From: Panagrolaimus kolymaensis
Taxonomy: Eukaryota; Nematoda; Chromadorea; Rhabditida; Panagrolaimidae
NCBI GenBank assembly: GCA_028622995.1
Contig: JAJQJQ010000010.1
Location: 1,426,001-1,490,000 of the forward strand
Direction: 5' to 3'
DNA: 64,000 nucleotides
The position numbers and the translations under genes were made by a program. The notes beneath the pieces are model-generated. The model did not search any database. It had not been told where the DNA came from and worked only from the letters and a program-made list of their open reading frames with translations. Of this stretch, positions 2,083-22,964 are shown in pieces. How positions within the stretch are numbered: position 1 is the stretch's first letter; every line of letters begins with the position of its first letter.

Positions 2083-4627
2083 TTTTCTTGTTTGAGCTCG
2101 TAACTGTCCTGTCTAAAAAATGGAATTAAATTTGATTAGGCATTAATCAAAATTAGAAGCGTAGGAAAATTACATAATCAAATTGCTATACTCGTCGTTG
2201 GTAAAATATAAAAAAAAGTAAACATATAAAAGGCATGGATCAATAATTTTGGAAAAATGAAAAAATCTTTAACTAAATTAAAAGATTATAAGATATTTAA
2301 AATAATTCATTCTTTTGTGAATATAAGTAAGATCATCGAGCTGTTGTTGTAAATAGAAATGATTTAGTACGAAAAAAGAAAGTTTATTTTTCTGTTGTAT
2401 TTTAATGAAGTAGGCAAAATTTCAATACATCTTAATTCATATCGGCATAAAAGTTGACAGATGCAAGACTTATTGAATATAAAAAAGTTGTAGGATAAAG
2501 TACGGTATTCAAAGAATATCATTAGACAAAGTGGGAAAAGGCAAAGTTGAAAAGAAAAAGATAAAATTAAATTTGCAATTTAATATGTGAATTAAAACTC
2601 AAGCTACAACGTGTTTTTGACGGTGAATGCATAGCATCAATGCAATCAGTAGTAAGTCGGCCTTCAACAACAACAAGTATCGCTGGCAGCTTTTTCCAGC
2701 ATTTATTTTTTTCAGTGCCATTATCTTGCTTACTTGTCGACAAATGAAGAGAAGAAAACATGAGGATGGGTGTACACACTCGTTTTTATTTTTTATTTCT
2801 AAAGTTTGGCACAATCACTATCTTTGTTTGCTTGCTTGCAACGCTTAACACCCACCAAATTGCTTTTGACTTATTTTTTTTTGTTCTTTCGTTTTATTTT
2901 TTTAAATCTCCTTTAAAAACAGGCGGGGAGTAAATGAGTGAATGACTTGAGGCAAAAACATATCAAGAACCGTGTGTGTGAAGGCGGAAAAGTGATTTTT
3001 TTTACGGACGGCAAAAAATGTACTGGAATTTTTTCATTGCTTTGTTGTGGTTGAACAAGTGAAAAAAAAGAGAGGGAAGAAAGACAGCTTCATTGCATTT
3101 CATTAAATTTAAAAAACTATTAGAAAATTTAATAAATTATAAAATTATAATGCAAAAAAGAAAAGCAGTGTCATGCAGGCAATAATGAGATTGAAATTTA
3201 CAAAAAAAAGTTGATGACAGATGGGAAGGCTTTAAACGCTGTCTTAATTATGATCCTCATTAATTTAACAAAAAAATATGACAGCAGATGCTAAATAAAA
3301 CAGAATTAAGTGGATACTTGGCGAATGTTTGCATACTGTAATTTCCATTCTTGGTTGATTTGAAAGCAATTTTGATTATCATCTTTACTTTCTTCCTTCA
3401 ATCTTTTATGGCAAAATTTGCACGCAAAATTTTCTATTTATTTCTTTACTGTTTCTTTTTTTTGCACTTTGAGCTTTTGCATTTTTTATTCATTATTTCT
3501 TGTTTCTAAATTTTTTAACAACTATCTATTTTTTATCTTGGATAATGCAAGCTTTTGGCGTGCGTCCATCAAGCAATTTTTTTCCTTCTTTTTCTTCCTT
3601 GCTTTTTTCTTTTTTTATTTTTTTGCAAAGAACAAACATCAACTAACTAACTAGGTGTATCCGCCGCCCACGGCGGTATTGCTTTCTTGCTGCTTACTTA
3701 CTTGCTAGCTTTGGTGGAAAATTATTTTCGGATCAACCAAACAAAAAAAGAGACGAAGACGATGTCGCGACCCTTCTTTGAAGATGAGAACAAAAAACGA
3801 TGCTTTCTTTTTTTTCTTCTCCAAGACGCTGGATGAATAGCAGGCGGAGGAAAAAAGTTTTTTTCCTTACCGCATCATGTCAAATATCCCTCTTTTAAAA
3901 CATTTAAATTGTCAAATCATTGTTGGAAACATTAGAAAAAAATTAATGTCAAGAATATAAGAGATAAGCATTTGAAAAAATTTCTTAATGGTTGGGTATT
4001 TATTTTTATTGTTCTCGAAAACTTAAAAAAATTATGCATTAATTATTTAGAATTCTGGAAAAGCATACAGAAATGTCAATATTTTAAGAAATTGAAAGAA
4101 AAATGCAAAAAGGACCAACAAAAGCTTAAAAGCTCAAAGTTGTTTTTGTTTTTCTTTTTAAAAGTCAGAAATCATAAAAGCACTTTTTTCCACAACACAC
4201 CTTATGTGTATATAGTTGAGGGAAAAAAAGTAATGCGCGGTAGTTGACATTCGTACACACACAGTCACAAATAGCATACGCGCTTTCAAATAATCCATTT
4301 TTGCACATTTTTCTTTCTACTAAAGCTTCCTGATTTCTGAATAAAAAACATTTTCATTACAAAGATAAATATAATAACGAAAGCCTTTTTGGAAGAATGA
4401 ATGGCTGATATATCTTTCAAAAAAAAATCAGAGGAATAACACAAAAAAAGTTTTATTATTATTTTTTGTCAATGAATAGAAGAAAGACTGGCAACAACAA
4501 CAGTGAATGTAGTATGTAAAAGCGGCACATTTCCGCGCATAAAGAAAGTCGTGACAGCAACAACGGCTGTCGTCGTCTTTCATTTTTAAGCTACTTTTTT
4601 AGTTGTTGCTTTTTTTTTAATAAAAAC
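2083..4627. other. Intergenic region between two divergent genes
   Basis: About 2.5 kb of AT-rich DNA separates the start codons of the acidic-protein gene (minus) and the PRPSAP gene (plus), so it must hold both promoters. I see poly-T/poly-A runs and small GTC/GAC triplet clusters (for example near 3763 and 4571). There is no convincing coding exon, RNA gene or repeat. Confidence 0.5.
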
Positions 4628-6504
4628 ATGGAATCTAAATTTGTTGTAATTGGCGGAAATTCCCATCCTAAATTTTTACAATCTGTTGTGAGGTAATAAA
4701 CTTTTTTATTATGCTAACTATTTCAAAAAAGTTAATAAAATGATTCGATAAAAATCTAAATGTCCATTTGAGCTATGGGCAAACTATAAAAATATTTTTT
4801 TAGTTATAAATTATGAATATGTTTTTACGCTAACATGCAAAAGCAATTTTTTTCTCCAACATTTAATTTATTTATTTTTAGGGCTTTGGATGTTCCAATT
4901 GGCCGAATCAATGCGTATAAACAATCAAATAATGGTAATTAATAGTTTTTGATAATTATAAACCCATACCGCTTTTTTAGAAATCAGTATTAATATGGAA
5001 GAATCAGTTCGAGGCCGCGATGTTTTTGTGATTCAGAGTGTTAACATGTGAGTGTTTTTTTGATGTTGAGTTAAAGGACCCTGTTCATTTGATCTTTTTT
5101 TCAAACTCGCGTTTGATTATTCCCTCATGCCGCAATATTGCAAAGCCCGTAAAGTACCGTAATGTACAGTAATTTTACGGTCAAATTACTGTACTTTACG
5201 GACTCTGCAATATTGCGGCATGAGGGAATAATCAAACGCGAGTTTGAAAAAAAGATCAAATGAAAAGGGTCCTTTAAGTAAAAGTTTAATTTATTTTTAG
5301 CCAGGGAAGTGTCAATAATGACATCATTGAAGCATTAATGTTGAATTATGCTTGCTCAACGTCAGCAGCTAAAAGTATTACATTGATCCTTCCTTACTTG
5401 CCATATTGCACCCAATCACGAATGCATGGCAGATCTGGAGTTCCATTAAGTTTGTTGGCTTCAATTATTGAAAAATCGGGTGTTTGTCGTATAGTTTCAA
5501 TTGATCTTTATCGAAAAGAGTTACAAGGATTTTTTCATGTTCCACTTGAAAATTTACGAGCTTCTCCCTTTTTGATTAAAGCAATTCAAGATAATGTAAG
5601 CTTTATAAAAAATATTAAATCTACAAAGTCTGCTTTTATAGATTCCCGATTATCAAAATAGTATTTTGATTGCCGCAAATACAAATGCTTTAGCAAGAGC
5701 GACTGCTTTTAGTGAAAGGCTTAAACTTGGTAAGATTAAAAATAATAATAAATTAAATTAAGAACTAATAATTTTCTAACATCTACGCTTTTTATTAAAC
5801 CTCCAGGTCCCGTCGGTTAGTTTTATTAATTAATGTTAAACTATGTGTTGTTTGTTGTCTGTGTGTCAGTATTTTATTTAAGAAAATTAAAGTTTCGCCA
5901 AACAAAATAATTTTTAGATATTGGCCGTATTTCGGGTACTCTGGAAGGTGAAAATATCGAAGATTTGCGAATGAGTCCGCCGCCACAAGAACGAATTTCA
6001 TCTTTTCAATTATTTCCAAGTAAATATTGCTTCAACAATGTCATAAAAAATATTATACATTTAGGTCAATTACCATTTGAGCCTCCAAAGCACAAACAAC
6101 CGCTTTGTGTGGAAGGTGATGTAAATGGTCGAATTGCTATCATCGTCGATGATATCTTAGATGATGTTCGACTTCACGTTGAAGCTGCAAGAATAATTAA
6201 ACAAAGAGGAGCTTATAAAATTTATATTGTTGCCACTCATGGAATACTTTCGGGTAATGCACCCGCTCTTCTCGAAGATTCAAAAATTGATGAAGTAAGT
6301 CCAAATAAATAAACATAAAACGTTGAAAACGATAATCTTTTTTAGGTGATTGTAACAAACACAGTTCCACACGAAATTCAAAAAATGAGAACACACAAAA
6401 TTAAAACCATCGATATTTCGCCTCTTATAACGGAAGCTATAAGATCTATAAATAATAATGAATCAATGGGGGCTCTATTTGCTCATGTTCACGTTGGTGA
6501 ATGA
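4628..6504 (+). CDS. Phosphoribosyl-pyrophosphate synthetase-associated protein (PRPSAP-like)
   Basis: Regulatory, catalytically silent relative of ribose-phosphate pyrophosphokinase. In animals it associates with PRPP synthetase subunits, which make PRPP for nucleotide synthesis in the cytosol. Exons: 4628-4692, 4882-4934, 4981-5047, 5301-5595, 5642-5729, 5806-5814, 5918-6019, 6065-6294 and 6346-6504. They give 355 residues, about the length of the mammalian protein. Family motifs seen are [53 protein letters not shown] and the C-terminal NNESMGALF. The PRPP-binding loop of active synthetases (DD..DTCGT) is replaced by [12 protein letters not shown], as in PRPSAP. The 9-nt exon at 5806-5814 is optional because skipping it keeps frame. 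A palindromic element lies in the intron before 5301. The TWK channel exons start 486 bp downstream. Confidence 0.92.
5071..5277. mobile_element. Palindromic foldback MITE-like element flanked by TTAA
   Basis: A 207-bp near-perfect palindrome sits in an intron of the PRPSAP-like gene. The left arm starts TTAAAGGACCCTGTTCATTT and the right arm ends with its near reverse complement, AAATGAAAAGGGTCCTTTAA. Arms of roughly 90 nt differ at only a few positions around a short centre that itself carries GTAAAGTAC-type inverted motifs. TTAA stands at both outer edges and could be the target duplication (TTAA, or TA within it). No ORF is present, so it would be non-autonomous. It could also be transcribed with the intron and fold into a long hairpin RNA. 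Confidence 0.8.
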
Positions 6505-6989
6505 AACACCACGAGAACATCACTTTTTTAACCGTCCATTTCCATATTTATCCATATCATTTTATTTTCTATTTTCTCTAAATTATGTATATCTGAAAGT
6601 TTTGCTATTTCATTTTTTAAAAACTATTTTAATCCTTTCTTTTTTTTTAAAAAGTATTAATTTACAAATAAACCTTGCTTGTCGTCGTCTCCTTCTTTTT
6701 TTGTTAAAACAAAAAGAAAAAAAGAAAGCAAAACTTTGTTTATTTTTCCAATGGCATCCCAAGTTTTTGTCTTTGCCAAAAATGGAGAAGAAGAATCAAC
6801 TGTTAAGTTTGTAAGAAAAAAAGGAATGAAAAAGTGAAGAAAGAAAAGATGAGCAAAGAAAAACAGACAATGGTGGCGCGATAACTAAAAGCTTTCAACC
6901 ATAACAAATGTAATCATTTTTGTTTTAACAAAAAAGTGTGTATATATATTTTTGAAGCAAATTATTTTTAAAAACGAAAATAAAGAAAT
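6505..6989. other. Spacer between PRPSAP gene and first channel exon
   Basis: About 485 bp of T-rich sequence containing the PRPSAP 3' UTR and, presumably, the promoter of the first alternative channel exon. A TATATATA run lies near 6942. No coding exon is seen. Confidence 0.4.
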
Positions 6990-7134
6990 ATGTCGGTATT
7001 TGCTACCCGTAGTATTACACGTGAAGATTCTGAATCTGCCCGTCGAAAGAAGTCAATTAAACGAAATCCATCGCAGTTGGTAAAATTTAAAGATGAGATT
7101 TCTGTTATTTCTGGTGCACCGTCGAGTCAAACAG
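6990..7134 (+). CDS. Channel alternative first exon A
   Basis: ATG at 6990 opens 48 codons beginning MSVFATRSITREDSE, followed by a basic stretch RRKKSIKR. It ends ACAG|GTAAGT with one spare base (G), in phase with the common exon at 17196. It could alternatively splice to exon B, whose acceptor at 8325 is also in frame. A short Ser/Arg/Lys-rich cytoplasmic N-terminus is expected. Confidence 0.65.
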
Positions 7135-10100
7135 GTAAGTATTTTTTTAAATATTTGTTAAAATCTTTCAAATTTGGATTCCGAAAGAAATCTGAAATGA
7201 TATTCGATAACCTTTCAATTTGTAGTAAAACCAAAAACAAGTTATAGTTAATTTTATTTTGGCTTTGTTAAGGTCACGTTTTTGTTTATATAAAAAAAAC
7301 AGTGTTAAAATGATAGCTGTCTTTTTTTTCACGCCTTCTTTTTTTCTTTTCTTGTTGAGCCATCTGGTTGTTCTATATTTTCATAATAATTCTTTTATGT
7401 TTTTTAAACAAAGTAGTAAATGAATGAATGATAATTTAGTTAAGCATAATTTTTCCATAGTTAAGATTTCTCAGAAACTCTCTTTTTTTTGAATTGATTC
7501 ATAAAAAAAACAACGAATGTTGCACATGCTTCTTCTAAAAAAGGCACTGCATATCAATGAATGAAAATGCTGTTGAGTTGGCGGCAGTTATGCAAATCAC
7601 TGTAGAGTCCAGTCCCTTTTTTAGAAAGAGGAAGGAAACGCGAGTAAACCCTTTTTCCTTTTTTAAAAATCAAAAAAAAAAAATAGCGTCAAAGTACTGC
7701 TTTTTTTATTTTCCCCTAAAATTTTGTTTTACAACCAATTTTAAAAAGTTATAAGTTAATATTTTTATTATTATTATTTTTTTGCGCTCCCTTTGTTTTC
7801 CCTCCAATAAAGCTATTTTTTGTATGGCACCCAAAAATAAAGAATATTCATATTTTTTTTCGTGCCTCCATAATATTTTTTTATGATGCATTTCCCTATC
7901 TTTTTCATATGCAATTATATCCGCTGAGAGTTATTATAGACTTTGATATTCATAGTAGCTTTTTGGAAAATAAATATTGGATTTGATGTGTTCAACCATA
8001 ACCAGCAGAATTTACATCCTCGAATAAGCAAGAGTTATAATAATAATAAAAACAATATTATATTTTTAATGTATCCTCCCTCTGTTATTTAGCCAGCATG
8101 AATTCAAAGAATGCAATATATAGACTACTAAAAAATGTGACGATTTTTATCGCAATATTGTTTTTAAAGAAATGAAAATGGCAAAAAAGTTTTAAAGCTT
8201 TTTTTGGTTTCTATTCGAAAAATAAATATAAAAAACGATATTAGTCAAATTCAAAAACAAGTGTGTCAGTTTTGTAATAAAAAAAAGATTTAAAAATTAA
8301 ATACTAAAAACTGATTAATTTTAAGACGCTGAAAATATGTTGCAATCCGTTTCATCTCATCTTATGGCTAAAGGAACCTTTGGTTCCAGAAAAGTCAGTA
8401 CCCAAACTCTATCATCTCAAAAATCAAGCATTCAACATAAACCAAGTATTCAACAACAAATTCTTCAACATGCTCAATTGGAACTTAGTAGCATGTGTTC
8501 TATTGTTGCACGATGTAATCTTTCTCAAAGTAACGTTCTAAAAAATTTAAAGTCAAAGAGTTGAAAAAAAAAAGTTTTTTAAAAACTAAATAATTTAACA
8601 AAAATTTTAAACTTCGTCTTTTTCATTTTTTAAAACCAATTTTTAACCATTTAATAATAATGGTTCGAATGGACTTTTTTCACTTTTTTATGCGTTCAAA
8701 AATATTTATTTTTCCTGTGTTTTTTGGTTTAGTCTAAAGAGTTACATATAATATTTTTTGCATACATTTTTGACGCATTTGAAAAAAATTGTTATTTCAA
8801 AATGCATTTGATTCGTTAAAAAGGTGCTACATTTTTTTCTTCAAAATTTGAAATCGATCCTTTGAAGAACAAAAATCTAACCAAAACAATGAAACAATAA
8901 TTATGTTGGTGAAAAAAAGGTATATTAGAAAAATGAAATAAAAATTTAACTAACCTCTCTCTAGCTTCTGCTTCTTTATTTTTTATATATCTGATAGTCG
9001 TCGTCAGGAAGTCATTTTATTTTTTATTTTATTTATTTTTTTCTGCAATTTAACTTCAATTCATTCAACCATGGATAAAGGTGAGACGCTCACTATATTC
9101 TGTATATGAGGGGCTAAAAAAAGTAGAAGAGCTTGCTTAGCTTAAATAGTGTACAACAGCGTGCCACCACAATTTTATTTATATTTTATTTTTTTTCGGA
9201 GGCTCTTCCAGAATGATGAGTACGTATACCACCAATTGATTGACTACGAAATACTTTATTATTAGAATAAAAAAATTATATTAAAATATAATTTTTTATT
9301 CCACAGTCATCATGGCAAAATCATGGTTGCGATCTGTGATGGTGCCAGAAGAAGAAATGCATGCAAGATCTTTAATGAATACGGATAATGAAGCAGCTCT
9401 TGCATATGCATTATATAAATTAACATTGCCTTCATATTCAAGATTAGCAGGTAGGCTAAAAAAAGTTGCATTTTTATTTTTCTGCAAAACTTTTCATTTA
9501 TCTTCCTTCTCATTTTCATGTATCAATTTTTTCTCTTTTCATTTTAAAGATAATTCTATTTTGAAAATGACTGAACCTTACCCCATTTTTTTCTCTCCTT
9601 GGCTTGCTTGTTATCGCATGCCTTTAAGCATTGTCATAACCGCTATTTTTCTTTTTCTCCATTTGAAGGCAATTGTCATTTATGTATGGAATTTCTGAAG
9701 AATTTTTTTTATTACCTACTCCAAAAAGATATATTTCTATTTTTCTTCTTGGGGATATATGTAAGTAATGAGAAGGAGTCTAAGCCTTTTTCTTTCAATC
9801 CGTTACAAGCATGCTGGAAGGAAAAATTTAAGTTAAATAGCTGCAATTATAAAACCTTAAAAAACCCCCATAGATTTTTTTGCTTTGTAATTTATCTACT
9901 TTGAATAAAGAAAAAAAAGGAAAAGTTTTACTTTTTTTTTGTTTTGAAATGAGGCCATTGTTATACATACTTCTGTTTTTGACACCAACATAAAAAATCT
10001 ATATATACGAAAAATGCCATTGTTATATTCCTTTTTTAATTTTTGTTTCTATTAAGTATTCATAGTTAAGTTTAGCTTTTTTTTCTCGTCGGCACAAAAA

Positions 10101-13100
10101 GAGGCTGGAAATTACGTTTATAGCAACAAAAGTTCACGATGACATCTAATTAGATGCATATTGAAGAATGCCACCACCACACGTTTGTAACACAGGAAGT
10201 TGGTCTTTGAATAGTTTTGTTTTTGTTTTTTATTAATATTTATTTCGAGGTTTAAAGTATTGGGACTTGAAAGATCCATAAATCTATTTTATCTTTGGTT
10301 GACATACTTTTTTTCTAAACTTTATTTTATGCCTTATCATCTGTTTTTTAACAAATTTTACAACAACCTTTTATCTCTTTTTCGAAGTTGTGTGTGTTTG
10401 GCAATAATTATTCGGTAATGATACACTCATATAAATTTTTTTTAGTTGTTTTTTTCTTTTTCTTTCTCTTCACAATTTCATTTTTTTAAAAGCACTCTCG
10501 AGATTTGTTGTGCAATTAGCTGTTTTCAAAAAATGCGAACAACTCATCTTCTCTCAAATAAGGCACGCAACAATTCAATTGACGCCCAGCTTTTTTCCGG
10601 CGGTTTTGGTTGTTGCGACCATATAAATGCATTGCAATCCATCCAACCCCGTAATAAAGAAGAACACAACATAACTAAACTCAACTTAGATTTTTCTTGT
10701 TGTTGCATTTCGATTTCCTCAACATACATTAACACCAAAATAAATCTACATACTGCCCAAATAGGAAACTAACTTCGCTTCTGTTCCAAAATAAATAAAG
10801 TTAGTTAGTTAAACGAAAAAAGAAAAAAAGAGAAGTTAATTATTTTTATGCTTTAAAAAATTGTTGCTGAATAAGAAAAAGATGCTTGCTGGTTGCCGAA
10901 TGGGTGTTGAATACCTTGATTTTTATAATCATGTTGTTGGTATTGCCCCCCAAGCCATATCCTTTAATCTTCAACAACTTCCACCACATTTACGTTTACA
11001 AGTTCAAAATATTTTAATACAAAATCGAAAAATTAGTTTACCCAGAATAAGTTTGCCAAGTAAGTTTTAAAGCATCAAAGTTTTTTTCTGTTTGTTTTAA
11101 AAATAGTATTTTACTGGTCATTTTTTTTATTTTTGGTAAGAAAATGGAAAAGAAAAAAATAATTCTTAACTAACTTTTTTTTTCTTTTAATTCAACTTTT
11201 GCTGTCTTTTATTTTTTTCTTGCTCCCTCTCGACAAAGCGAGTAGCCTATTTTATTATGCACCTTCTTCGTCTGTAGGTGGATGGGAGAGAGGGCATCCA
11301 GAAGCCGGAATAAAAAACTTTTCATTTTTTGATTGACTAACTGACTACGACTACGCCGCCGCCAACACACAACCTGAAGAAATCCAACAATAGAAAACGT
11401 GTAACACCTATTTTTGTGGAAGAATTTTCAAATAACAATGACCTAAAAGAATAAAAACAAAGTTTCTATTCTCTGTGTCAAACTTGCAAGCCATGGCATA
11501 AAAAAAGGTGGCAGCCCACGATAAAGCCAATAACTCTACTTTTTATTTTTATTTTTTAAAGCTAATAGCAGCTATCTTTTTTCATCATCCAAGTTACTTT
11601 ATTTTTTTGAAAAGTTTATAAATCTTTTATGTTTCATGTGTTTTTCATTCATAAAAAAATTGTCCTTTTATTTTATTTTAAGATATGAGAAGAGACAAGG
11701 TATATAGATATGTCTAAGAAATAAGTATCAAATTACCATCTTGATCTTTTTTCCATTTCCACCAACCTACGTGTTGCTGTTTATGTTAAAACATATTCTT
11801 ACAACTATGAAAGACATATTTAACTTTGAGCAATTTTTCATAAGTTGTCCTTAAAACAAAAAATATATATATTGCAACAACAATGAAAAAAAAAATATAG
11901 CCGAAGCTATCCCTCCAGTTTTTGAGTTAAAAAAAAGTTGGCCTTTTTTAAGGGGGAAAAATGAAAGTATAAAGAACCTTTGCGGTGACGGCCGTTTTGT
12001 CTTCTTTCTTTCATTCCTTTTTTTCTTCTTCCGAGTTCTATGCTGAATCTGTTATGGCAAAAGGCATGAAAAGTGTCGGATAAGCTTCATTGTTTCTGGG
12101 TTGACTGATAGGGGTCTTCTTTGTGTTATTGTTTTAAGTGAATATTTTTAAAAGCATTCACTTTTAAACTTTTTAAGTATGTCAACCAATTTTCTTTAAT
12201 ACCATTATCTCTTCTTTCTTTTTTTTGGAATCCTTTTTACATATTCATAAGAATGAATCCCTTACACTTTAAAAAAGCAAATAATTTTAGTTTTTATAAA
12301 AGGATTTTTAATATTTTTTTCGCACCACTCATTTTTTGTTTTTCTTTCTTTCGTGTTTTGCATTATTATTAAATATCTTAAAAAATATTTATTTAAAGTT
12401 GCCGTTAACGGCGCGGTATGTTCCTTCGACAATTTTGGAACCAATGGAGTATATTACAAGGAGACGCCGATCCCTTTGTTGTGTTACAACATGCAGCAGA
12501 AAGGCGTCGAGCTGAAACTGAAGCAGGTTTACCCCATCATTTAGAAGTTTCACAACATGGAGGTATTTTACTTCCAGCACTTCCAACTTCTCCATTGCCT
12601 ATTGAAGGCGGAAATGGAAACTATATATTACCTGTTAGAGTCAAAAGATCAAGCTTTCATAGTGATATAACTACGACGGCTTCGATAAAAAATGTAAATG
12701 GTTAGTCTTCTTCGCTTTATTCAATTTTTTATATATATTTATTCAAATCACCCATTTGAGAGTCGTTATTTTTGTTTTAAAAAATTCTCGTTGCTTCAAG
12801 ATATCACTTATTTGTATTTTTCTTCTTCCATAAATCTATTGGAATTATTTTTTCTTCATGTTTTTAAAGAAACTTGACCACAGGTTGTTTTGCATCTAAG
12901 AAGCAACAACCGCCACATTCAATTTTTTCAACATTTTTCCCATTTTTAATTCATTTTGCAAAAATAATAATTTTTTCTGGCTCACCTTTATCTTTAAAAG
13001 TTTGTATTCTTTTTCATTTCTACTACCACAGGGATTTTATTCTATTCTTAGCCCTTTTAAAATTCCTTAGGGTATATTAGGCGTTTGGCTTTTTTATTTT

Positions 13101-16100
13101 TTATTTTGTTACTTGAAGCACCAAATGTTGTGAAGCTTGTCTTTTAATCTGCTACAGGACACGCACGACCATCCAATTAATTTCACTTTCAAAAGTTGTT
13201 ATTTTTTTTGTTGGTTTAGCATGGAAGCTAGCAAGCTTCCTGTGTTTTTGATGGAAGAAAATTTTTTTGTTTAATCCTTAAAAAAATAATTTTTTTATTT
13301 TGCTTTGAGACTAACATTTTTTTTATTGTCGTCGTTGCTAATATAATTTTTGTAACCTTATTTTAAGAAACTGATGCGTTCGAAAAAAAAACTAGTGTAA
13401 AGCAACAAAAAAAAGAAGCAAGAAATCTTTTCTTCTTATTTGGAGAAAACATTTCAGATGTTTGCATTTTTTTGAAAAAGAATTGAAGACTGACTTTTTT
13501 GAGAAAGAAAAGATTGCGCATGCAAGCAATGGAAGTCGTTTTATTTTTTGGTCAAATTTTTGAGCTTAAATAATTAATTCATTGACAAGCTATTTAGAGT
13601 CATGCTTTTCTTTTTTTTTTGTTTTCATTCAACAAAAAAAGTTAGGCGGCTAAACTGCGATTTACAGATTTTTTGTTTTTTGCTTTTTTAAATTTAACCG
13701 GTGCCTATTTAGTTGCTGCTGCTTCAATTTTAGATCCATTTTTTTAATTATTGTTCTATGTTTTTCTTTTGTGGCATTGAAAATCCCAACTATTACTTCC
13801 TGTCCCTCTAAGTTAAGATTTATTTTGTATAATGAGAAGCGCCTCTAAATTTCGCGAACAATGGTCAGTGTTGTTAGAAGTTTTGCTGTTGTTAAAATTC
13901 AACACTACTACTGCCAGTATTAAATCCAAAACTTGTTGCAAGATTGGTCTCAACTTTAGTTTATTTTTTTGTTGTTGTTCTAAAAAAAGTATTAAACTAA
14001 AATAATAAAATAATAATGTTTTATCGTGTATATAGTCGTCAACAAACTGCCACTGCTCTTACAGCAAATGTTGCGGCATCTACATTATCAAGTGATATAC
14101 AATCATTACGTGATATCATAACTTTATCATCACGTTCATCAAGTATGATATATACTCAAGGATTTCGAGATGAAAAATTTAGTCCTGCTGTAGCTTTATT
14201 TAGTGCAGCAGGATTAATTCATACTACAGCGGGTATTGCAGGTCGTAAAAGGTCTAAAAGCGAGCGTAAGAAATTTTTTTTTATATTTCTCAATTTTAAA
14301 GTCTTTTTTCTCGTATGCTTTTTTTGTTTGACATCTTTTTTTCCTCCCCCAAATTTATTCATTGATGTTATCGACTTAAACTTTTTTGAGATTTGCTTGT
14401 CTCGTTTGCAAGTCTATCTATCAAGAGGGTGGCTACCAAGCTTTTTAGTTTTTTTGATATGCTTCATAAATCATAAGGCGTGTCTTTATTATTCAACAAC
14501 AAAAAAAGTGAAACCAAATGACAAAAAAGTCATTGTCTTTGTTGTTGCTTTATATTTTTTTCTTTGCTTCTCAAAGGTAGATTTTTTATTGATGTAGAAA
14601 GCTGTCTCCATAGTCTCTATTTTTATAAATACTATGTTAAGAGCTCGAACAATTCGAATTTATTCTATTTCAAGTCAAAATGGTGGAATTATTCCATTAT
14701 TTAGACCAATATCACCAAAAGATTTTTATCCAAATATTCCTATGATTGATGATGACAACATTGATTCGTCTTCTTCTTTTCATTCTTGCAAAAGTGAACT
14801 TGACGCAACTGTTCTTTATTCCATTTATACGGGTATAAATCTTTTCTCTTTTTTATATTTTTCTTTAAATAACATCTATCGTCTGCTTTTTTCTTATAAT
14901 TATAGTGCCTTAAAGGGAAAAAATTAAAATAAGGTTCAGTCGTTTTTTATTTTTTATTTTTCTCTCTCTCTATTTTTAAATACTTTTTTATTCTTTCTTT
15001 TTTGCCATTTTGACACGACATCAAAGGTATCTAAAACAAGAAAAAAGAAAAAGAAAAAAATATATATCGTTGAAGTTGTCAATCAGTCTCCCAAGAGAGG
15101 AAAGAAAGGGCAGGCATGAGCTTGCTATTTTCAAAGAGTGAAAAAAAAGAAAAAAAAATGAAATATATTTAATGCCGTTTAACAAAAAGTTACACTTTTT
15201 AAATGTTTTGACAAAGATAGAAACCACTTTTCAAAAAAACTATTATCAAACAAAGTAATTCTGACATTAGCGTTCAATCACTTAAACATAGATTTCTTTT
15301 TATCTTTTAATAGGTTTTTAAAAGAGAGAGACTTTACCGTCAACGAATAAGGAAAAAATATAAAAGTTGCTTCTTTGAGTTGCCATTCGATTTCGAAGGC
15401 GTTGTTAGACAGAGCAGCTATTCTCGTGGTCGTCTTCATCTTTTGTATTGACCTCTATCTTCACTCCGCCCCAAAAAAATTCAACACATTTTGATGCAGC
15501 TTTTTATATATATATATCGGGGAATGAAGGAAGGATGAACGAAAGAATGAATGGATAAGCGGTCTATTTTTAAACAAAAATGCCTTAGCTTGTAGCTGAA
15601 AGCCGACGACGACATCGACGATGACAACAACAACGTAGAGAAGTCACAGTGTTAGCCACCATTGATGAAGAAGAAGAATTCTACAACAAAAAAATAAAAC
15701 ATGACTACTTGTTTCTGTCTTCTTGCCGCCGCCCATCGGTCTTCTTTGTACAAAGAAAAAACGTCGTTTTTGTTGCCCTTCACAAAAAAAAACTAACCAC
15801 AGAAGAAGAATAGAAACAGCTTCAAACAATGTTTTTTTACTAGGCATCTTTGCTGCTCAATCGCCACCCTCACATTCTTCTTTTGGGTTGGATAGAAGAA
15901 AGAAGAAAGATTCAATAATATTTTGACTTCCTATTATTATTTAAAAAGAAGCTTTAAATATTTTTCCAACAATTATTTATTTATTTGTTTCATATCAAAA
16001 CAAGATCAATCAATTTTTTTTTCTTCTTTGAAATGGTGCCACGAATTCGTAAACGACGAGAAAGCTGATGACAATTACGGTATTAGTATTGTTGGTGGTG

Positions 16101-19100
16101 TAGGACAACACATTCCTCAACCATTGTCATCGTGTTGTTGTTGCTTGTTTGTCAGCTGTCGAATTATATTTTTTTGTCGCATGCCTCGTTTCTTATTGCA
16201 ACGCCGTGGAAGAATTGGGTCGCAATTTTAATTGCATTATTTATTTCTAATTTGCTCAAAAAACTTTATTAGATTTTTCTTAATTTAATTGAAATCTTAT
16301 CATCATGTTTTTTTATTCGCCCCATCCAAAACCAAATATTCGAAGACCTACTTTGGGTCCACAACAGCTTCAAGTGGGACAATTGGATAGTCGAATCACA
16401 GCTCAAATAGCAGAAGTATTAGCTCGAAGTCCACCTTTTCATCCAGAAAGTTCTCGTGGAAGGCGACGATCTCGACCTATATCAGATGAAATTGTTGATG
16501 AACATGCAGTCTTTGCAGCGGCTGTACATCGTGCAAGTTTAGCTGGCGTTATTGAAGGAACGGAAGCAATTATTATGCCTCCACCTCCACAAACTCAACA
16601 ACCCATTGGAATTAGAGGTGGAAATAATAATATTATTTTTAATAATAATTTACCTGGGCCTCAAATTCAAATTGGTGGACAAGCACATTATTATTATGCA
16701 GATGTAGCATCACCCCAAGATTCCCTATTTTCTCTTACAGAATCACGGCGTCACAGTCGTGGAAATGTTCATCCTCGGGCACTCATTCTTCGAAGGCCCA
16801 CAATTTCTATACATGAAGATGGCAGAATTCTTATAGGTAGTTTCGCCAGCATTGGAACTATAACAATTTGAATAAGAATTTAGGAAGAAAAAACTAAAAT
16901 TCTTTTGTTTTTTTTTTTGAGGGAAAAGCTTTTTTTTATTTAAAGTTATTTCTATTTTTAATTGCTATTGTTTAGAGCGCCACTCTTTTTTACTATTATT
17001 GTCTACGATTTTTTTTATTTTCTGCAATAATTAATTATTTCAAAGCACTTACTTAACGATAAGAAAAGAAAAACTAAAAAAACTCAGGAAAAAAATAGAA
17101 GAAAAACATATTTTTAGCATGTCAAAAAAATTTTTTTTCTTGATAGTGTTTAATTTGCTAATATATCTATCTCAAATGAGAGGTTGTTTTTATAGATCAC
17201 GTGACAGCTCGATGGGATGGTGTTCCGTTGACATCACAAAGCGGGTTATTGGATGCGGATGAAGGTGGAACAATAATAACTGATACATTAAAAGAAGATG
17301 AAAGAAAAGAACCTAAAAGTTTCAGACAACAAATATTTAAGGTAATTTTAATTTTCTTTTAAATTTATTTTTTCACAAAAAAATTTGCTTAAAATTAGTC
17401 TATATTAGTGAATTAGCTCTTCTTATCGCTTTGTTTTGGGGCATAGAAGAATTTCTTCCAGAAAAACAACAATTTTATTTTATTACTCTCTTTATAACAT
17501 GACATAACATCCTTTAAAAAAAAGAGTTTTTTTATTTTTCTTTCTTCCAAGCTATAAAAACGCGTGAACTCTTTTTTTGACACCCCAGAAAAATTCTTTT
17601 TTAGCTGTTTTGGGACTCTAAGTTGTCGACGTCCCTGCAGGGGATAACAGAAACAACAAAAGTGCTACAATGAAAAGCCAAAAGAAAAAAAAATACTTCG
17701 CGCTGCTACAAGTTCGATAATATCATCCGGGGAAACTGCGGAGATTGTCCAGTAACAACAAACAAACAAGCTCGTTTCCGGCCATTGTGTGTCCATTTCA
17801 CTTATATCTATTTTATTTTTATTTTTTAACGCGAACAAAAAAAGCTGTAGAAGCGGCAACATACAAATTGATGACGGCAAAAAAGCAACAATCGTGGGGT
17901 TCATATATTTTTACGCTTCTTCCGGAGCTTGGACGGAAGAGGGTCATCTTTTCTTTTAACAACAAAAAAAAAGTTCTAAAGCGTGAAAGAAGAATCAGCT
18001 GCGTTAAGAAGATACTAAAACTGCCGATAGAAACAAAAAATGTATATACTTTTTAGGACCTACTACAGGGTGTCGAGGGGATATATGAAGTAGAGAGAAA
18101 AAAAGGAACACATACACACAGTTACAAAAATATGAGGAAGCATAGTAGTTTGTCATGTTATTTTTTATTTAAGCGTTTTTCAACTTCTTTCATGAAATGT
18201 TTTTTCTTTCACGGAACTGGAAGAAAATTTAAAGAAGATTTATAAACACATTCAAAAAAGCAAATAACTCACATCAGTAGCAAAAAACGTTCATGATAGA
18301 CTAGACGAAAAAGCAATAAATATAATATTTTATGTGTTTTCAGTATATTAAAATATTAGTACCTCATGTTATTTTGGTATCCGTCCTTATCGGTTATTTG
18401 TGCATTGGAGCATGGATTTTAATGTCATTAGAAACTAAAACTGAATTAATGTCTAGGTAATTAATCGTTTTTAGCTATCGATTATTAACTTAATTAAGCG
18501 ACATTTTAGGTCACGAAAGCTTGTAAGAGTAACAAATTTAATGAAAAATTTCACAGCAGAAAGTTGGCAAATATTAAATGATGCACAAACGGGTGTTCGC
18601 ATGGTACATCATAGTGAATGGTCTAATACATTTCAGTAAGCATTTTTATTAAATTTCAAAAACCATTATTTATTCATAAAAAATTTGTTTAAGAGAATAT
18701 ATGTTGAGAATATCGGAAACAGTGGATGATCGACGTCCAATAAGAAGAGAATTACAAGATCCAGAAAGTTTAGAAAATATGCATAATAAATGGACTTTTC
18801 CAACTTCATTACTTTATGTTTTAACAGTGTTAACCACTTGTGGTTATGGTGAAGTTTCTGTGGATACAGATACAGGCAAAATATTTTCTGTTATTTTTGC
18901 TTTAGTTGGTATACCACTTATGTTCATAACTGCAGCAGATATTGGTAAATTTTTATCTGAAACGTTGTTAAAAACCGTAAATGCATATAATCGAGGAAGT
19001 AAACGTGTAAAAGTAAGCAATCGAAAAAATTTTTAACTTAAAAAAAGAATAAATTTTTGAAGGGTGTTTTGATGCAAATTTTTTGCCGTCGAAAATGGGC

Positions 19101-19861
19101 TCGACGCAAATCATTACAATCTGCAAATGGAAAAATTGAAAATATTGGTATGCTTGATATTGAAAATGCTGAAGAAAAGCTATGGTTCCCTATTGGAGCA
19201 TACGTATTTTGTATATGTATTTATTGTTCATTGGGTTCTGCAATGTTTATTAATTGGGAAAGAAATTGGTCTTTTATACATGCATTTCATTTTGGTTTTA
19301 ATTTAATTGTTACCGTTGGACTTGGTGATATTGTTGTAACAAACTATGTATTTTTAGCTTTAATTGTTGCATTTGTTATTGTTGGTAAGTTACAATTATG
19401 AGTAAACTTGATTATAGCAAGTATGGTTTAGGTCTTGCGGTGGTCACTATGTGTGTCGACTTGGCTTCAACCCATTTAAAAGCATATTTCACGAGGATAC
19501 ATTATTTTGGTCGAGCCAAAAGATTTTTGGGTATGAGCGAAGAATTAAAAGAAATCGTTGCACTTTTGGGGGCTATGAGGAAGAAAAAAGGAGGAAAAGT
19601 TAGTTTTTATCCAACAACAAAAGTAGTAAGTAATTTTAATTTAAGGTCACGTGGAATGATGTTCGAGACTTTTTGGATAATGAACTTCGAGATCGACCAT
19701 TTGAACCTCATGAACTTTTAATGAAATTACGTTTTATTGATGAAACAAGTTCAGGAATGAGCACAATTCGACATAATAGTTTTCAATCAGATTTTTATCG
19801 AGATAATGAATATTTACGTCGCCTGGCTGCATTAAGGACTGAACAACCAGCTTACCTGTGA
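6990..19861 (+). CDS. TWK-type two-pore-domain potassium channel gene (whole locus)
   Basis: K2P leak K+ channel of the plasma membrane. The common body has exons 17196-17341, 18344-18456, 18510-18635, 18694-19012, 19063-19384, 19432-19598 and 19646-19861, encoding about 470 residues. The order is a cytoplasmic segment (from HVTARWDG), M1 (HVILVSVLIGYLCIGAWI), a long M1-P1 extracellular loop, P1 with filter TTCGYGEV, M2, M3 (GAYVFCICIYCSLGSAMFI), P2 with filter TVGLGDIV, M4, and a cytoplasmic tail ending EQPAYL. The tail motif STIRHNSFQSDFYRDNEY looks highly constrained. Upstream, eight or more alternative first exons (6990-16836, listed separately) all end with one spare base, so each can join the common exon at 17196 in frame. 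With the longest first exon the product is 646 residues. The family assignment is secure; the exact orthologue is not. Confidence 0.9.
8326..8529 (+). CDS. Channel alternative first or cassette exon B
   Basis: A TTTTAAG acceptor precedes 8326 and an ATG lies at 8337 (MLQSVSSHLMAKG). The reading frame runs to a donor, CAAA|GTAACG, after 8529, leaving one spare base. Read from exon A the junction adds Asp-Ala-Glu-Asn before this methionine in the same frame, so B may be a cassette exon as well as a first exon. Without splicing the frame would stop at 8564. The product is Ser/Gln-rich, ending near ARCNLSQ. Confidence 0.55.
9071..9080 (+). CDS. Possible 10-nt first exon encoding Met-Asp-Lys
   Basis: ACC-ATGG-ATAAAG|GTGAGA gives an ATG in good context, three codons and one spare base before a donor. 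It could splice to exon C (9304) or straight to the common exon in frame. A 10-nt exon is hard to prove by eye, so this is tentative. Confidence 0.3.
9304..9450 (+). CDS. Channel alternative first or cassette exon C
   Basis: A good acceptor (TTCCACAG) ends just before the exon. ATG at 9312 starts MAKSWLRSVMVPEEEMHARS, and the exon ends AGCAG|GTAGGC after 9450 with one spare base. Reading from an upstream phase-1 exon (for example the Met-Asp-Lys exon) enters as Val-Ile-Met in the same frame. C is therefore a candidate symmetrical cassette as well as a start exon. Confidence 0.6.
10882..11059 (+). CDS. Channel alternative first exon D
   Basis: ATG at 10882 starts MLAGCRMGVEYLDFYNHVVG. The 59-codon exon ends CCAA|GTAAGT with one spare base (A), in phase with 17196. 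The peptide contains NLQQLPPHLRLQVQNILIQN, probably amphipathic. No acceptor in frame precedes it, consistent with its own promoter. Confidence 0.65.
12418..12700 (+). CDS. Channel alternative first exon E
   Basis: ATG at 12418 opens 94 codons (MFLRQFWNQWSILQGDADPF), ending AAATG|GTTAGT with one spare base. An in-frame TAA lies just upstream, so the exon is read only from this ATG or one inside it. Basic segments (ERRRAE, RVKRSSF) fit a cytoplasmic N-terminal tail. Confidence 0.7.
14016..14265 (+). CDS. Channel alternative first exon F
   Basis: ATG at 14016 opens 83 codons (MFYRVYSRQQTATALTANVA) rich in Ser/Thr/Ala, ending with a basic GRKRSKSE run and a donor C|GTAAG after 14265. One base is left over. 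Joining to 17196 gives His at the junction rather than Asp. Confidence 0.7.
14634..14832 (+). CDS. Channel alternative first exon G
   Basis: ATG at 14634 opens 66 codons (MLRARTIRIYSISSQNGGII), ending TACGG|GTATAA after 14832 with one spare base. A possible CCATAG acceptor about 20 nt upstream would also read into this ATG in frame, so cassette use is possible. The segment DDDNIDSSSSFHSCKSE is Ser-rich. Confidence 0.65.
16305..16836 (+). CDS. Channel alternative first exon H (longest)
   Basis: ATG at 16305 opens 177 codons (MFFYSPHPKPNIRRPTLGPQ) without a stop, ending CTTATAG|GTAGTT after 16836 with one spare base. It lies closest to the common exon (17196). The peptide is Pro/Arg-rich with SRGRRRSRP, a polyPro PPPPQTQQP patch, an Asn-rich loop and SRRHSRG. 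Joining gives a 646-residue channel with a 177-residue private N-terminus. Confidence 0.8.
17196..17341 (+). CDS. First common channel exon (acceptor of all N-terminal exons)
   Basis: The acceptor TTTATAG is followed by ATCACGTGACAGC; two bases complete the codon begun by each upstream exon. It encodes a cytoplasmic linker (HVTARWDGVPLTSQSGLLDA, then acidic, then KSFRQQIFK) and joins the M1 exon at 18344 in frame. It is the hub on which the alternative N-termini converge. Confidence 0.85.
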
Positions 19862-20269
19862 TTTTTATTAATTAATTTCCATATCCTAGGATCTAATCGA
19901 TTTTGATTTACTTCGATTAAATTTTTTTTATTCCTGCCATACATTGATTTTTTGCTTTTTTATTTTCAACCTTTTTTTCGTCCATTTTTTTAAACTTTTG
20001 CAAATCTTTAAAACTTTCTTACAAATTTACGCGAGTATATTTTTGTTTTGTTTTTGACAACGCCTTTTTTGAAAGTATAATTTCGCTACATTTTTATGCG
20101 AAATAAAAATTTCTTTATCCCAAAAAATATATATAATCGAATAATAATAAGCAATATGTGAAAGATAGAAGAAATAATTAACAAGCTTTCCCGTAAAAAA
20201 AAAGATTTACAACAAATTTGCATAATATTAAAAATAAATATATAAGGCACGAATAAATCATAATTATTG
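19862..20269. other. Convergent 3' intergenic spacer
   Basis: About 400 bp lie between the stop codons of the channel (plus) and the RUN/PH gene (minus). AATAAA-like signals are present on both strands (for example near 20101). Nothing else is recognised. Confidence 0.5.
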
Positions 20270-22964
20270 TTAGTCGCTTACAGGAGCATTCCGCCAAAAA
20301 TCATGCATTTTTGTACATTGTTTATACAGTATATTACTTTTATCACGTCCAAAATGCATTTCATCCACTGAATCAGTAACTGGAATGCCACATTTGATAT
20401 TTAAAGTTGTTTCAAGCCGACGTAATTCCGTTAAAGTTCTCACAACAATCCAATCAGTTGAATTTGATTGATGCTCAATAACAACAACATTAATAGATTC
20501 TGTGTGAACTGAAGTAATATTAGTAATTTTCATAATATCAATTTTCTTGAGGAGTCTCATAAACCCATCAACAGCACAATTAGCGCCTTCATGAGAAAAT
20601 AAAATCCATCCAGAGGTTATGGTCAAATAACATGGCACAGCATCGGGATTTGAATTGGAGGTGGATAAGGCGAGATTAACATTTTGAATCCAAGTTCTCA
20701 TTATTTCCATATTTGCACAACTAAATTGAAATCCAGTTGATCCATCGTATGATGTTAATTGGAAGACATGTTGTTCATCATTTCGAAGTTCAACTTCACC
20801 AACGGTTTCAATGCTGTCTCGTAAATTCCATTGTTGCTCAGCAAATTTACAGCTTGCATCCACAAATTGATATAATCGACATCCTCTGCAAAATACATAT
20901 TTTATTTAATTAACTGTTAATTTGCGATTAAAGCTTACTTTAAAACAAAATATGCATGTTTCCATTCTCCATAAGGTTTAATCCAATTTTTATGTTTCAC
21001 TTCTCTAAATGTTAAATATCCTTCTAAGGCTTCCAATTCTGATGTCGTTCCAGCATATTCTAACCAATAAATTAATGAATGGTGTATTAACGGAGCATTA
21101 GGGATTTCAAGCTCTTTGCTTACAAATCGTTTTAAAGTAATAGAATTTGGCGTACCATCAGTGAAAATACTTGGTGCATCTCCAGTTGATTCAATCATGG
21201 CTTGCTTCACCGCTGATAAAAGTTGTTTGGTCAATTTAATGCTTCCACATTCGATAGTTAAATTTTTTGATTCATGATCAGAATAACTCATCGAAAATTT
21301 TCTATGTTTGCATTCAATAGCAAAATTCTGGTAATCTACTCCCACACAAATACAATCGATATCGGGAAAATGAACGTAAGCATGAAGGCGAAATTCTACA
21401 TGTGGTCGAGTTTCACTTGGACTACTGGGTGTTGCAGTAGCTTCTACAGCTTCATTCATTTCTGAAGCTTTTTGGGAAAGAAGATATACTCTTCTATCAG
21501 TGAGGACGAAAAGCCGTTGCAAAGGTCTTCCAATTGCATGATTGGTATAAATTGACCACGATTTTCGATATCGCTCTCCTTGATCAACAAATATTGAAAG
21601 ACCAAGTTCAATAACTTCATAAGGTTCAAGACTGAAACATTTATCTTTCATAAAACAAAATGAAAAATGCAGCAAAAACTAACATATATTCTCCAATAAT
21701 TGGATCAACGGCATGAACATCACTGAAATTATCAACCATTGGTGCAACTTCTGGTTCAGGCTCGTTGAATTCTCCCTCATTTTCATCTTCATTTTCGTTT
21801 TCAACTGTATATGTTGAATCAATTAAATCATCACCTTTATGTCCTTCTGCTGACACTTCAGGCGCTTCATATATTTTATCATTCAAATTTTCTTCTGTTT
21901 GAGCTTCATTTTCAGACCCTTTTTCACTCACTGTATCGGAAGCTGTCACATGATGGGCTTTTGTCATTTGATCAAAAATATATTGCTGAAATTAAATTCA
22001 ATGAGAAATAAAGGTATTTAACTATAAAAATTTACATGATTGGTTTCAAAATTTCCTGGTTCTTCATCAAATGGAATATCACGAGTTTCAACTCTTGGCA
22101 AATTTCTCGTCATTTCAATTAGCGAATTCACGGTAGGCATATCAGTGGCAATAAGTTCAGTATGATCAATATCGGGAGTGCCATGAAGAGGGGATGCTGG
22201 AAGGATTCTCGTTTTTCTTAAACTATGAAGTTGTGGAACCGAAGTATCCAATTCTTCGGATGGACGTGAACTTGTTGGCAAAGCGATGGGCACTCTTTCC
22301 ATTGCAGTATCAATTGGAGTCTAAATAAAGAGGTCAAATATTTGTAATAAAAATTTGCAGAGTAGTTACCAGAAATGCAAAATTAATATTCATTAAATCA
22401 TCCAATTTAATCAAAAGTTGATTCACCAATCTTGGATTTCTCATATATGCATCTTTAAAATAATATCCCTCCAAAATTTTTCGGCTACATTGAGAAAAAG
22501 CTGTACAATCAAAATATAGCGTATGTCTGGAATATTGTAATATAGGAAATAATAATGAAAATAAATAAATTTACTTATTTAATCCATCTTTCAACCAAGC
22601 TAATGATAAGGCACGATTTCTTTTTGTTTTCCATTCCGCTTGAAGATCAAGTTGTTGGGAAAGTGATAGAAAGTTTTTAGCGAAATTCCAATAACATTTT
22701 TCATCGTTTAATAACCTTTAAAATGTAATTAAAATTAAAGCTTTAAAAAATGACAATAACTTACCGATGAGAAAATATTGAATCAAGAGCTTTTAAAATT
22801 GCAACTGAATCGGGATGTGATGAATTAAAAGTCCGATTTTGATCTTTATTAAGTTCTTGAATATCCGTAAACGCAATAGATAATTGTTCAAAAAGATGTA
22901 TAGCATTTACAACTTTTGGTTTACGTCGTGGAGATAATCCCGTTGGAGTAAAATCATGAAACAT
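20270..22964 (-). CDS. RUN-domain and PH-domain protein, PLEKHM2/SKIP-like
   Basis: Probable adaptor for lysosome or vesicle positioning. Exons 22964-22765, 22715-22575, 22526-22370, 22320-22036, 21985-21684, 21631-20939 and 20885-20270 give 797 residues. Residues 1-165 fit a RUN domain (SVAILKALDSIFSHR, YWNFAKNFLSLS, LAWLKDGLNK, ILEGYYFKDAYM). Residues 166-360 are an acidic linker. Residues 363-560 contain FVLTDRRVYLLSQ and other beta-rich segments. A PH-like domain follows around 570-690 (LEGYLTFREVK, WKHAYFVLKRGCRLYQF, closing TWIQNVNLAL), then another beta-rich module to the end. The order RUN, acidic linker, C-terminal PH matches PLEKHM2, which binds small GTPases and kinesin light chain. 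Lysosomal function here is inferred from that resemblance only. Confidence 0.75.

What the first reader, a model, noticed from the sequence alone, without database searches (positions are those of the whole stretch)
6990..17341. Phase-locked array of at least eight alternative N-terminal exons on one K+ channel gene
Eight exons spread over 10 kb (A 6990-7134, B to 8529, C to 9450, D 10882-11059, E 12418-12700, F 14016-14265, G 14634-14832, H 16305-16836) each open with an ATG and run to a donor. Each leaves exactly one spare base, matching the acceptor at 17196. Independent ORFs would end in phase 1 eight times out of eight by chance only about once in several thousand. The private N-termini range from 46 to 177 residues and are unrelated in sequence. 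One pore could thus carry many different cytoplasmic N-termini, each probably under its own promoter, which suggests cell-type-specific regulation of a leak channel.
Basis: partly seen in the sequence, partly recalled or inferred. Interest (0 to 1): 0.88.

Follow-up and report, generated by a model that had tools for sequence, protein, structure and literature searches.

The report
Eight-way alternative starts, UNC-58 channel gene
A roundworm ion-channel gene carries eight different protein-coding opening segments in a row, all ending in the same reading phase and kept intact in three diverged copies of the gene in the same genome; they are likely used one at a time, so that a single leak channel would be built with eight different inner ends, an arrangement suggested before, in smaller form, for the same gene in the lab worm C. 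elegans.

Summary
Eight ATG-started exons (A-H, 46-177 residues) lie at 6990-16836; each ends with one spare base that completes a codon at the common acceptor 17196. The gene is the orthologue of C. elegans UNC-58 (K2P; 74% identity; same pore filters TTCGYG/TVGLGD). The genome (probably triploid Panagrolaimus kolymaensis) holds two further copies. Over the three copies the exons show 72 synonymous and 13 non-synonymous changes, one 3-bp indel, conserved ATGs and GT donors. A phase-blind scan recovers these eight; top-scoring donors are all phase 1. A, B, E, F, G, H have counterparts in other nematodes' predicted UNC-58 proteins, collinear in the seven models that hold more than one; C and D have none found. 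G is weakest. Separate promoters are inferred: sequence before the ATGs is constrained, but no more than the array's other non-coding DNA. No RNA data were at hand. Prior art: three phase-1 start exons predicted for C. elegans unc-58 (PMC6886504). UNC-58 is reported Na+-permeable, so "K+ leak" is probably wrong.

The parts
6990..7134 (+). alternative first exon A (48 aa + 1 nt)
   Evidence: phase 1, CAG|GTAAGT; 8 syn / 0 non-syn over 3 homeologs; resembles the N-terminus of Steinernema hermaphroditum P0042
8337..8529 (+). alternative first exon B (64 aa + 1 nt)
   Evidence: phase 1; 5 syn / 3 non-syn; starts like C. elegans P0030 MLQSVSAHLM, three Pristionchus proteins and one Dictyocaulus protein
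9312..9450 (+). alternative first exon C (46 aa + 1 nt)
   Evidence: phase 1; 5 syn / 0 non-syn; no counterpart found outside this genome
10882..11059 (+). alternative first exon D (59 aa + 1 nt)
   Evidence: phase 1; 8 syn / 0 non-syn; peptide identical in all three homeologs; no counterpart found outside this genome
12418..12700 (+). alternative first exon E (94 aa + 1 nt)
   Evidence: phase 1; 8 syn / 0 non-syn; Pristionchus MFLRKFWNQW
14016..14265 (+). alternative first exon F (83 aa + 1 nt)
   Evidence: phase 1; 10 syn / 3 non-syn; 62-67% identity to Caenorhabditis, Mesorhabditis and Haemonchus N-termini from residue 44 on, tblastn E down to 1e-14
14634..14832 (+). alternative first exon G (66 aa + 1 nt), weakest of the eight
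   Evidence: phase 1, weak donor GTATAA; no indel over 3 homeologs but 2 syn / 3 non-syn; modest match to A. besseyi P0034 between its F and H parts
16305..16836 (+). alternative first exon H (177 aa + 1 nt), the type of C. elegans P0028 (UNC-58)
   Evidence: phase 1; 26 syn / 4 non-syn; counterparts in many nematodes, tblastn E to 1e-62
17196..17341 (+). first common exon; acceptor TTTTTATAG|AT predicted to serve all eight
   Evidence: acceptor conserved in three homeologs
18344..18456 (+). common exon 2 (start of the channel core)
   Evidence: open reading, conserved junctions
18510..18635 (+). common exon 3
18694..19012 (+). common exon 4, pore loop 1 (TTCGYG)
19063..19384 (+). common exon 5, pore loop 2 (TVGLGD)
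19432..19598 (+). common exon 6
19646..19861 (+). common exon 7, ends in TGA stop

Best explanation
This is an UNC-58-type two-pore-domain channel gene in which eight ATG-started coding exons, all ending in the same phase, precede seven common coding exons; the eight are predicted to be mutually exclusive first exons, each likely transcribed from its own nearby promoter and spliced to the single acceptor at 17196. Shown by sequence: the exons, their phase, purifying selection in three diverged copies (G excepted), and homology and order of most of them in other nematodes' predicted proteins. Inferred: the splices themselves; that transcripts start separately before each exon; that different cell classes pick different exons; that every isoform forms the same cation-permeable (probably Na+-permeable) pore with a different cytoplasmic N-terminus next to the first membrane helix; and that these N-termini tune gating, placement or kinase control of the leak. 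Six of eight N-termini carry a basophilic-kinase-like motif [RK][RK]x[ST], which suggests that many bring their own phosphorylation switch to the pore (untested, noticed after the fact).
For: Exon anatomy and phase. Three homeologs, 92-94% identical over the gene: 83 of 1919 exon columns variable against 787 of 8416 in the DNA between; 72 synonymous v 13 non-synonymous, pooled pN/pS 0.054; gap runs counted by row 2 (one 3-bp indel) in exons against 256 in flanks, 56 expected by length; ATGs and GTs conserved. Phase-blind scan finds the same eight. Frames beyond the donor differ in length between homeologs for A, B, C, F, G. B, E, F and H types are joined directly to the core in predicted proteins of other nematodes; A and G types are seen only in models that run on into an H-type part. 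The seven models I found with two or three types keep the window's order. C. elegans prior: three phase-1 start exons predicted in unc-58 (PMC6886504). For promoters, weakly: 114 of 1547 columns variable in the 200 bases before the ATGs against 220 of 1534 after the donors, 47 of 250 in five small core introns, 33 of 182 at core fourfold sites.
Against: No RNA evidence. G: no significant coding constraint, weak donor. C and D: no counterpart outside this genome, though these searches need shared 5-residue words; one search also missed the A and G matches seen by alignment. Promoters: non-coding DNA more than 200 bases from any of the eight exons (453 of 5367) and the first common intron (74 of 982), which has no start exon after it, are about as constrained as the stretches before the ATGs, and exon E goes the opposite way, so upstream constraint is not specific. 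Conserved pyrimidine-AG sites lie close before some ATGs (A -32, B -11, E -19, G -20), so some exons could be reached by cis- or trans-splicing.
Confidence: 0.8

Rival explanations
1. One promoter (or few) makes a long 5' transcript, and the eight ATG exons are chosen by alternative cis-splicing or by spliced-leader trans-splicing next to each ATG rather than by eight promoters.
For: Conserved pyrimidine-AG sites within 35 bases upstream of A, B, E and G; trans-splicing is common in nematodes (recalled); constraint before the ATGs is no stronger than in the array's other non-coding DNA.
Against: No such site within 50 bases of C, D, F or H (F has one at -56); the AG just before exon C in this copy is not conserved in the other two.
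Confidence: 0.25
2. Some of the eight ORFs are separate small genes that end at their own stops and never join the channel.
For: D, E and H reach a stop within 11 codons after the donor at the same place in all three homeologs.
Against: B, E, F and H types are joined to the channel core in other nematodes' predicted proteins; beyond the donor the frame is not kept in A, B, C, F, G; C, D, E, F scanned alone have no Pfam match (A, B, G not scanned).
Confidence: 0.05
3. Most exons are real and G (and perhaps C or D) is a chance or decaying ORF in the array.
For: G: 2 syn / 3 non-syn, weak donor GTATAA; C and D lack outside counterparts.
Against: G: no indel in 199 bases, low divergence, and a modest match at the collinear place in A. 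besseyi P0034 (3 of 5000 shuffles reach the score; 4 of 1000 over all 56 N-termini). C and D: 13 synonymous changes and no non-synonymous one between them.
Confidence: 0.2

Closest known systems
C. elegans unc-58 (T06H11.1) alternative start exons predicted by PhyloCSF (PMC6886504; passages seen, among them the figure legend, panel D)
   Same: Same gene by orthology; coding regions starting at a conserved ATG, ending at a conserved GT with a 1-nt partial codon that splices to the next exon of T06H11.1b.
   Different: Three exons predicted there; eight here, with constraint across homeologs and collinear counterparts in several nematodes; C and D not matched outside this genome.
C. elegans twk-40 (PMC9049526; passages seen)
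   Same: K2P gene with isoform-specific upstream exons; promoters in front of different isoforms are active in mostly different neurons; isoform-specific mutants differ in behaviour.
   Different: Three isoforms, another K2P gene.
C. elegans unc-68 ryanodine receptor exons 1.1/1.2 (PMC7644089; abstract and passages seen)
   Same: Mutually exclusive first exons from alternative promoters with tissue-specific use.
   Different: Two first exons, another channel family.
UGT1A and clustered protocadherin variable first exons (recalled, no call)
   Same: Works like them: many first exons, one shared 3' part.
   Different: There the variable exons are duplicates of one another and code for a main domain; here they are unrelated in sequence and code for short N-termini.

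Membership tests
UNC-58 K2P channel | Two pore domains of the Ion_trans_2 type | tested here: met
   Pfam PF07885, two stretches, 89.9 bits
UNC-58 K2P channel | Closest to UNC-58 rather than to other K2Ps | tested here: met
   Nearest named proteins are UNC-58 of many nematodes; C. elegans UNC-58 P0028 74% identity, while the next K2P group (P0079-P0095) is at 32-37%
UNC-58 K2P channel | Same pore-filter letters as C. elegans UNC-58 (TTCGYG, TVGLGD) | tested here: met
   Window protein against P0028
UNC-58 K2P channel | Na+ permeability | not testable with these tools
   Reported for C. elegans (passages in PMC11811770, PMC10038310); primary paper not held
Alternative-first-exon array | Several coding first exons with own ATG, phase-compatible with one common acceptor | tested here: met
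   8 of 8
Alternative-first-exon array | Exons under coding constraint | tested here: met
   7 of 8 at uncorrected p 0.014 or better; G not
Alternative-first-exon array | Separate promoter for each | tested here: inconclusive
   Constraint before the ATGs is no stronger than in the array's other non-coding DNA; no start-site data
Alternative-first-exon array | Transcripts joining each exon to the common part | not testable with these tools
   No RNA data offered; only other species' predicted proteins
UGT1A/protocadherin-type duplicated variable exons | Variable exons are paralogues of one another | tested here: not met
   Of 28 pairs three had z above 2.5 (A-C 2.6, E-G 3.3, E-H 3.3), each below the top of 200 shuffles

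The most novel reading that the evidence does not exclude
An ancient, ordered cassette of at least eight interchangeable cytoplasmic N-termini, kept across nematodes, lets one Na+-permeable leak channel be addressed cell type by cell type: each start exon brings its own promoter and its own kinase-site or localisation tag, so that the same depolarising pore obeys a different controller in each cell.
Probability: 0.25. Interest if true: 0.78.

Novelty: new member of a known kind. Interest (0 to 1): 0.6.

Why it matters
UNC-58 affects excitability in worm muscle and neurons and is reported to leak Na+, unlike ordinary K2Ps. If one pore comes with eight or more selectable N-termini, promoter or splice choice rather than gene duplication would be how nematodes diversify this leak, and isoform-blind work (mutants, drug tests, RNAi) would mix the forms up. 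The array also gives a clean place to ask how unrelated first exons are gained while phase is held. Several nematode gene models seem to fuse these exons, which can be put right.

Tried and rejected
Looked for outside counterparts of C+D and of G+A with region searches of 5.8 billion proteins: 85 and 29 candidates, none with E <= 10. Looked for more first exons: nothing beyond the eight with at least 25 codons and coding constraint; ATG-to-GT ORFs of 12 codons or more outside the exons gave 11 candidates, two of them overlapping the common exon at 17196, with 0-6 variable sites each and no third-position excess (little power). Looked for the MVLPVGAP-type N-terminus of P0011/P0023: no tblastn match below E 0.05 in window 1-20000. 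One H-type protein, P0010, also gave a weak match to exon E from inside its H part (E 0.006); with an E-H pair score below the top of 200 shuffles I take it as chance and did not count it as a two-type model. Tested whether exon C is an internal exon because a CAG precedes it: not conserved. Kinase-motif enrichment (6 of 8 against 1.25 by shuffling; 16 hand-picked non-H orthologue models 12 against 5.3, though four of these hold H parts too; H-type 31 of 31 against 8.7; paralogue K2P N-termini 9 of 22 against 4.8) was thought of after reading the sequences: a lead only. Matches among solved structures (56 sequences) lie within residues 200-377 of the A isoform, none in the N-terminus. Structure prediction was not run: short N-termini with few or no relatives would give a poor model.
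Full report
What was claimed. Eight ATG-started exons between 6990 and 16836, all ending in phase 1, feed one acceptor at 17196 of a K+ channel gene.

The eight exons are A 6990-7134, B 8337-8529, C 9312-9450, D 10882-11059, E 12418-12700, F 14016-14265, G 14634-14832, H 16305-16836. Each length is 1 mod 3 and each is followed by GT. Joined to the common exons 17196-17341, 18344-18456, 18510-18635, 18694-19012, 19063-19384, 19432-19598, 19646-19861, each gives one open protein of 515 to 646 residues. The N-termini are 46 to 177 residues long. In the window's copy each ATG has an in-frame stop after 2 to 14 open codons upstream, so these look like starting exons and not the 3' parts of longer open exons.

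The gene. The best matches are UNC-58 proteins of nematodes: 80-96% in five Panagrolaimus proteins (P0001, P0002, P0005, P0012, P0048), 74% for C. elegans UNC-58 (P0028). Pfam finds two Ion_trans_2 stretches. The pore letters TTCGYG and TVGLGD equal those of C. elegans UNC-58. The genome in which the window lies has 265.8 Mb in 807 contigs; the published P. kolymaensis assembly has 266 Mb in 856 contigs, and 49 mitochondrial contigs were identified (PMC10374039, passages); 856 - 49 = 807. That the window is P. kolymaensis is my inference. That species is described as triploid, and many K2P hits come in threes; the unc-58 hits are at C9 (the window), C17 and C2.

The three copies as a test. I fetched the other two loci and aligned all three. 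Over the gene the copies are 92-94% identical (88-89% in a stretch further upstream, window 3001-5075). Across the eight exons 83 of 1919 columns vary, 69 of them at third codon positions; changes count as 72 synonymous and 13 non-synonymous (pooled pN/pS 0.054). Exon by exon (syn/non): A 8/0, B 5/3, C 5/0, D 8/0, E 8/0, F 10/3, G 2/3, H 26/4; all but G depart from neutrality at uncorrected p 0.014 or better (B is the 0.014), G has p 0.31. The exons hold a single 3-bp indel (in H, counted in two rows) where 56 gap runs would be expected from the flanks. ATG and GT are conserved in all three for all eight. In the window's copy a CAG stands just before exon C; in the other two copies there is no AG there, so C is not reached by an acceptor at that place.

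A phase-blind scan. Taking every ATG conserved in the three copies between about 6.5 and 17.3 kb, every conserved GT and no frameshift, with at least 25 codons, gave 37 ATG/donor pairs in 9 groups: the eight exons and one insignificant ORF at 10533. The top-scoring donor was phase 1 for all eight. Caveats: the donor matrix rests on six donors; for B the donor 8514 scored 0.1 above 8529; for G the donor 14793 led and 14832 was not listed; these are phase 1 too. Choosing by constraint p-value instead of donor score, the pairs listed for A, D and E end at nearby GTs that are not phase 1, since p hardly moves over a few codons. An earlier version with a stricter donor cut-off did not list F and G. 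The other strand gave 2 groups, neither constrained. Downstream of the donor the frame is open for different lengths in the three copies for A, B, C, F and G, so coding appears to stop at the donor; for D, E and H a stop follows within 11 codons in all copies and this test says nothing.

Other nematodes. Of 119 proteins found, the N-termini were compared with the window. tblastn placed F-type N-termini of Caenorhabditis briggsae, C. bovis, Mesorhabditis and Haemonchus at 14145, H-type ones at 16305, Pristionchus MFLRKFWNQW at 12418, and Steinernema hermaphroditum P0042 at 6990. C. elegans P0030, three Pristionchus and one Dictyocaulus protein begin like exon B. With 1000 shuffles scored over 56 N-termini, the best match was reached by 0 (A), 14 (B), 341 (C), 543 (D), 0 (E), 0 (F), 4 (G) shuffles; H was not put to this test. 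The G match is to Aphelenchoides besseyi P0034, whose gene model runs F-like, G-like, H-like in that order; after the G-like part it reads GKNKKK, which looks like a phase-1 donor read through (my inference, no DNA seen). Seven gene models that I found to hold two or three types all keep the window's order: P0031, P0032, P0036 (one genus; B<E), P0034 (F<G<H), P0042 (A<H), P0108 (B<H), P0015 (F<H). A weak second match in P0010 was set aside (see Tried and rejected). H types also occur in Ascaris, Toxocara and Anisakis proteins. So much of the array is old. Searches for C+D and G+A against the protein collection found nothing at E <= 10, but these searches need shared 5-residue words. D and G occur in the own genome only at the three unc-58 copies.

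Regulation. Around the exons, 114 of 1547 aligned columns vary in the 200 bases before the ATGs and 220 of 1534 in the 200 bases after the donors (Fisher p 4e-10); five small core introns 47 of 250, core fourfold sites 33 of 182, alternative-exon fourfold sites 45 of 286. After the donor, divergence is near neutral; before the ATG it is about half. Seven of eight exons show the same direction (F and H only slightly), E the opposite. A control tempers this: non-coding DNA of the array more than 200 bases from any of these exons varies at 453 of 5367 columns, and the first common intron, which has no start exon after it, at 74 of 982. So most of the non-coding DNA here is held back, not the pre-ATG stretches in particular. 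This fits a region rich in control elements, but does not show eight promoters.

What the N-termini may do. They are unrelated to one another; C, D, E and F scanned alone, and H within its isoform, have no Pfam match. A, B, D, E, F and H contain [RK][RK]x[ST]; 1.25 of 8 are expected by shuffling and none of 5000 shuffles reached 6. The motif was chosen after seeing the sequences. It is also frequent in 16 hand-picked non-H orthologue models (12 against 5.3, four of which hold H parts too) and in all 31 H types, less so in paralogous K2Ps (9 of 22 against 4.8). I take it as a lead for kinase control.

What is known. A figure legend in PMC6886504 (passages seen) says that three conserved regions in an intron of C. 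elegans unc-58 suggest alternative start exons, each with a conserved ATG, a conserved GT and a 1-nt partial codon that splices to the next exon of T06H11.1b. The principle is thus in print for C. elegans. Published residue numbers also point to at least two isoforms: F332 in UNC-58a (PMC9049526) and F294 (PMC6377628) appear to name the same helix residue; P0028 has it at 332. I saw no paper on a larger array in the listings of searches for unc-58 and related terms; the lists are capped and the library lacks many journals. UNC-58 is described as the first Na+-permeable K2P of C. elegans in a passage of PMC11811770 citing Andrini et al. 2024 (not held), and the L428F mutant as giving a Na+ leak in PMC10038310; PMC8765651 still calls it a potassium leak channel.

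Verdict. The array is real and largely conserved, G is the weakest member, use of the exons and their promoters is inferred, and the channel is UNC-58. It is a new, larger member of a known kind. On checking, made me lower the confidence from 0.85 to 0.8 and the probability of the novel case from 0.3 to 0.25.

Noticed in passing
G000 (whole assembly): Many K2P hits come in sets of three near-equal copies on different contigs, as expected for a triploid; size and contig count match the published P. kolymaensis assembly minus its mitochondrial contigs.
   Followed up: partly
window exons A, B, D, E, F, H: Six of eight private N-termini carry a basophilic-kinase-like motif [RK][RK]x[ST], far above shuffles; also common in orthologue N-termini.
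   Followed up: partly
P0011, P0023 (other nematodes): A further N-terminal type, MVLPVGAP..., joined to the UNC-58 core on short contigs (2.2-2.6 kb, possibly transcripts); no match in window 1-20000.
   Followed up: partly
window 17592-17841: Within the first common intron a 250-base stretch is almost unchanged in the three copies (5 of 245 columns variable), less variable than the eight start exons taken together; a candidate control element or RNA.
   Followed up: no
window 9451-10881: The DNA between exons C and D is 12-13% different from C17 and C2, which differ from each other by 3.3% there; most other stretches of the array are more even.
   Followed up: no
window 5965-6504 (+): 3' end of a gene with a phosphoribosyl-synthetase-associated domain, ending (by eye) about 0.5 kb before exon A.
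   Followed up: no
window 20270-22970 (-), extent by eye: Gene on the opposite strand with a PLEKHM2 PH-like domain (found in 20938-21675), tail to tail with unc-58.
   Followed up: no
window 31538-33160 (+): 540-residue open frame with a DB module, fibronectin III and weak immunoglobulin-like matches.
   Followed up: no
window 50662-51165 (+): Part of an angiotensin-converting-enzyme-like (Peptidase_M2) gene.
   Followed up: no
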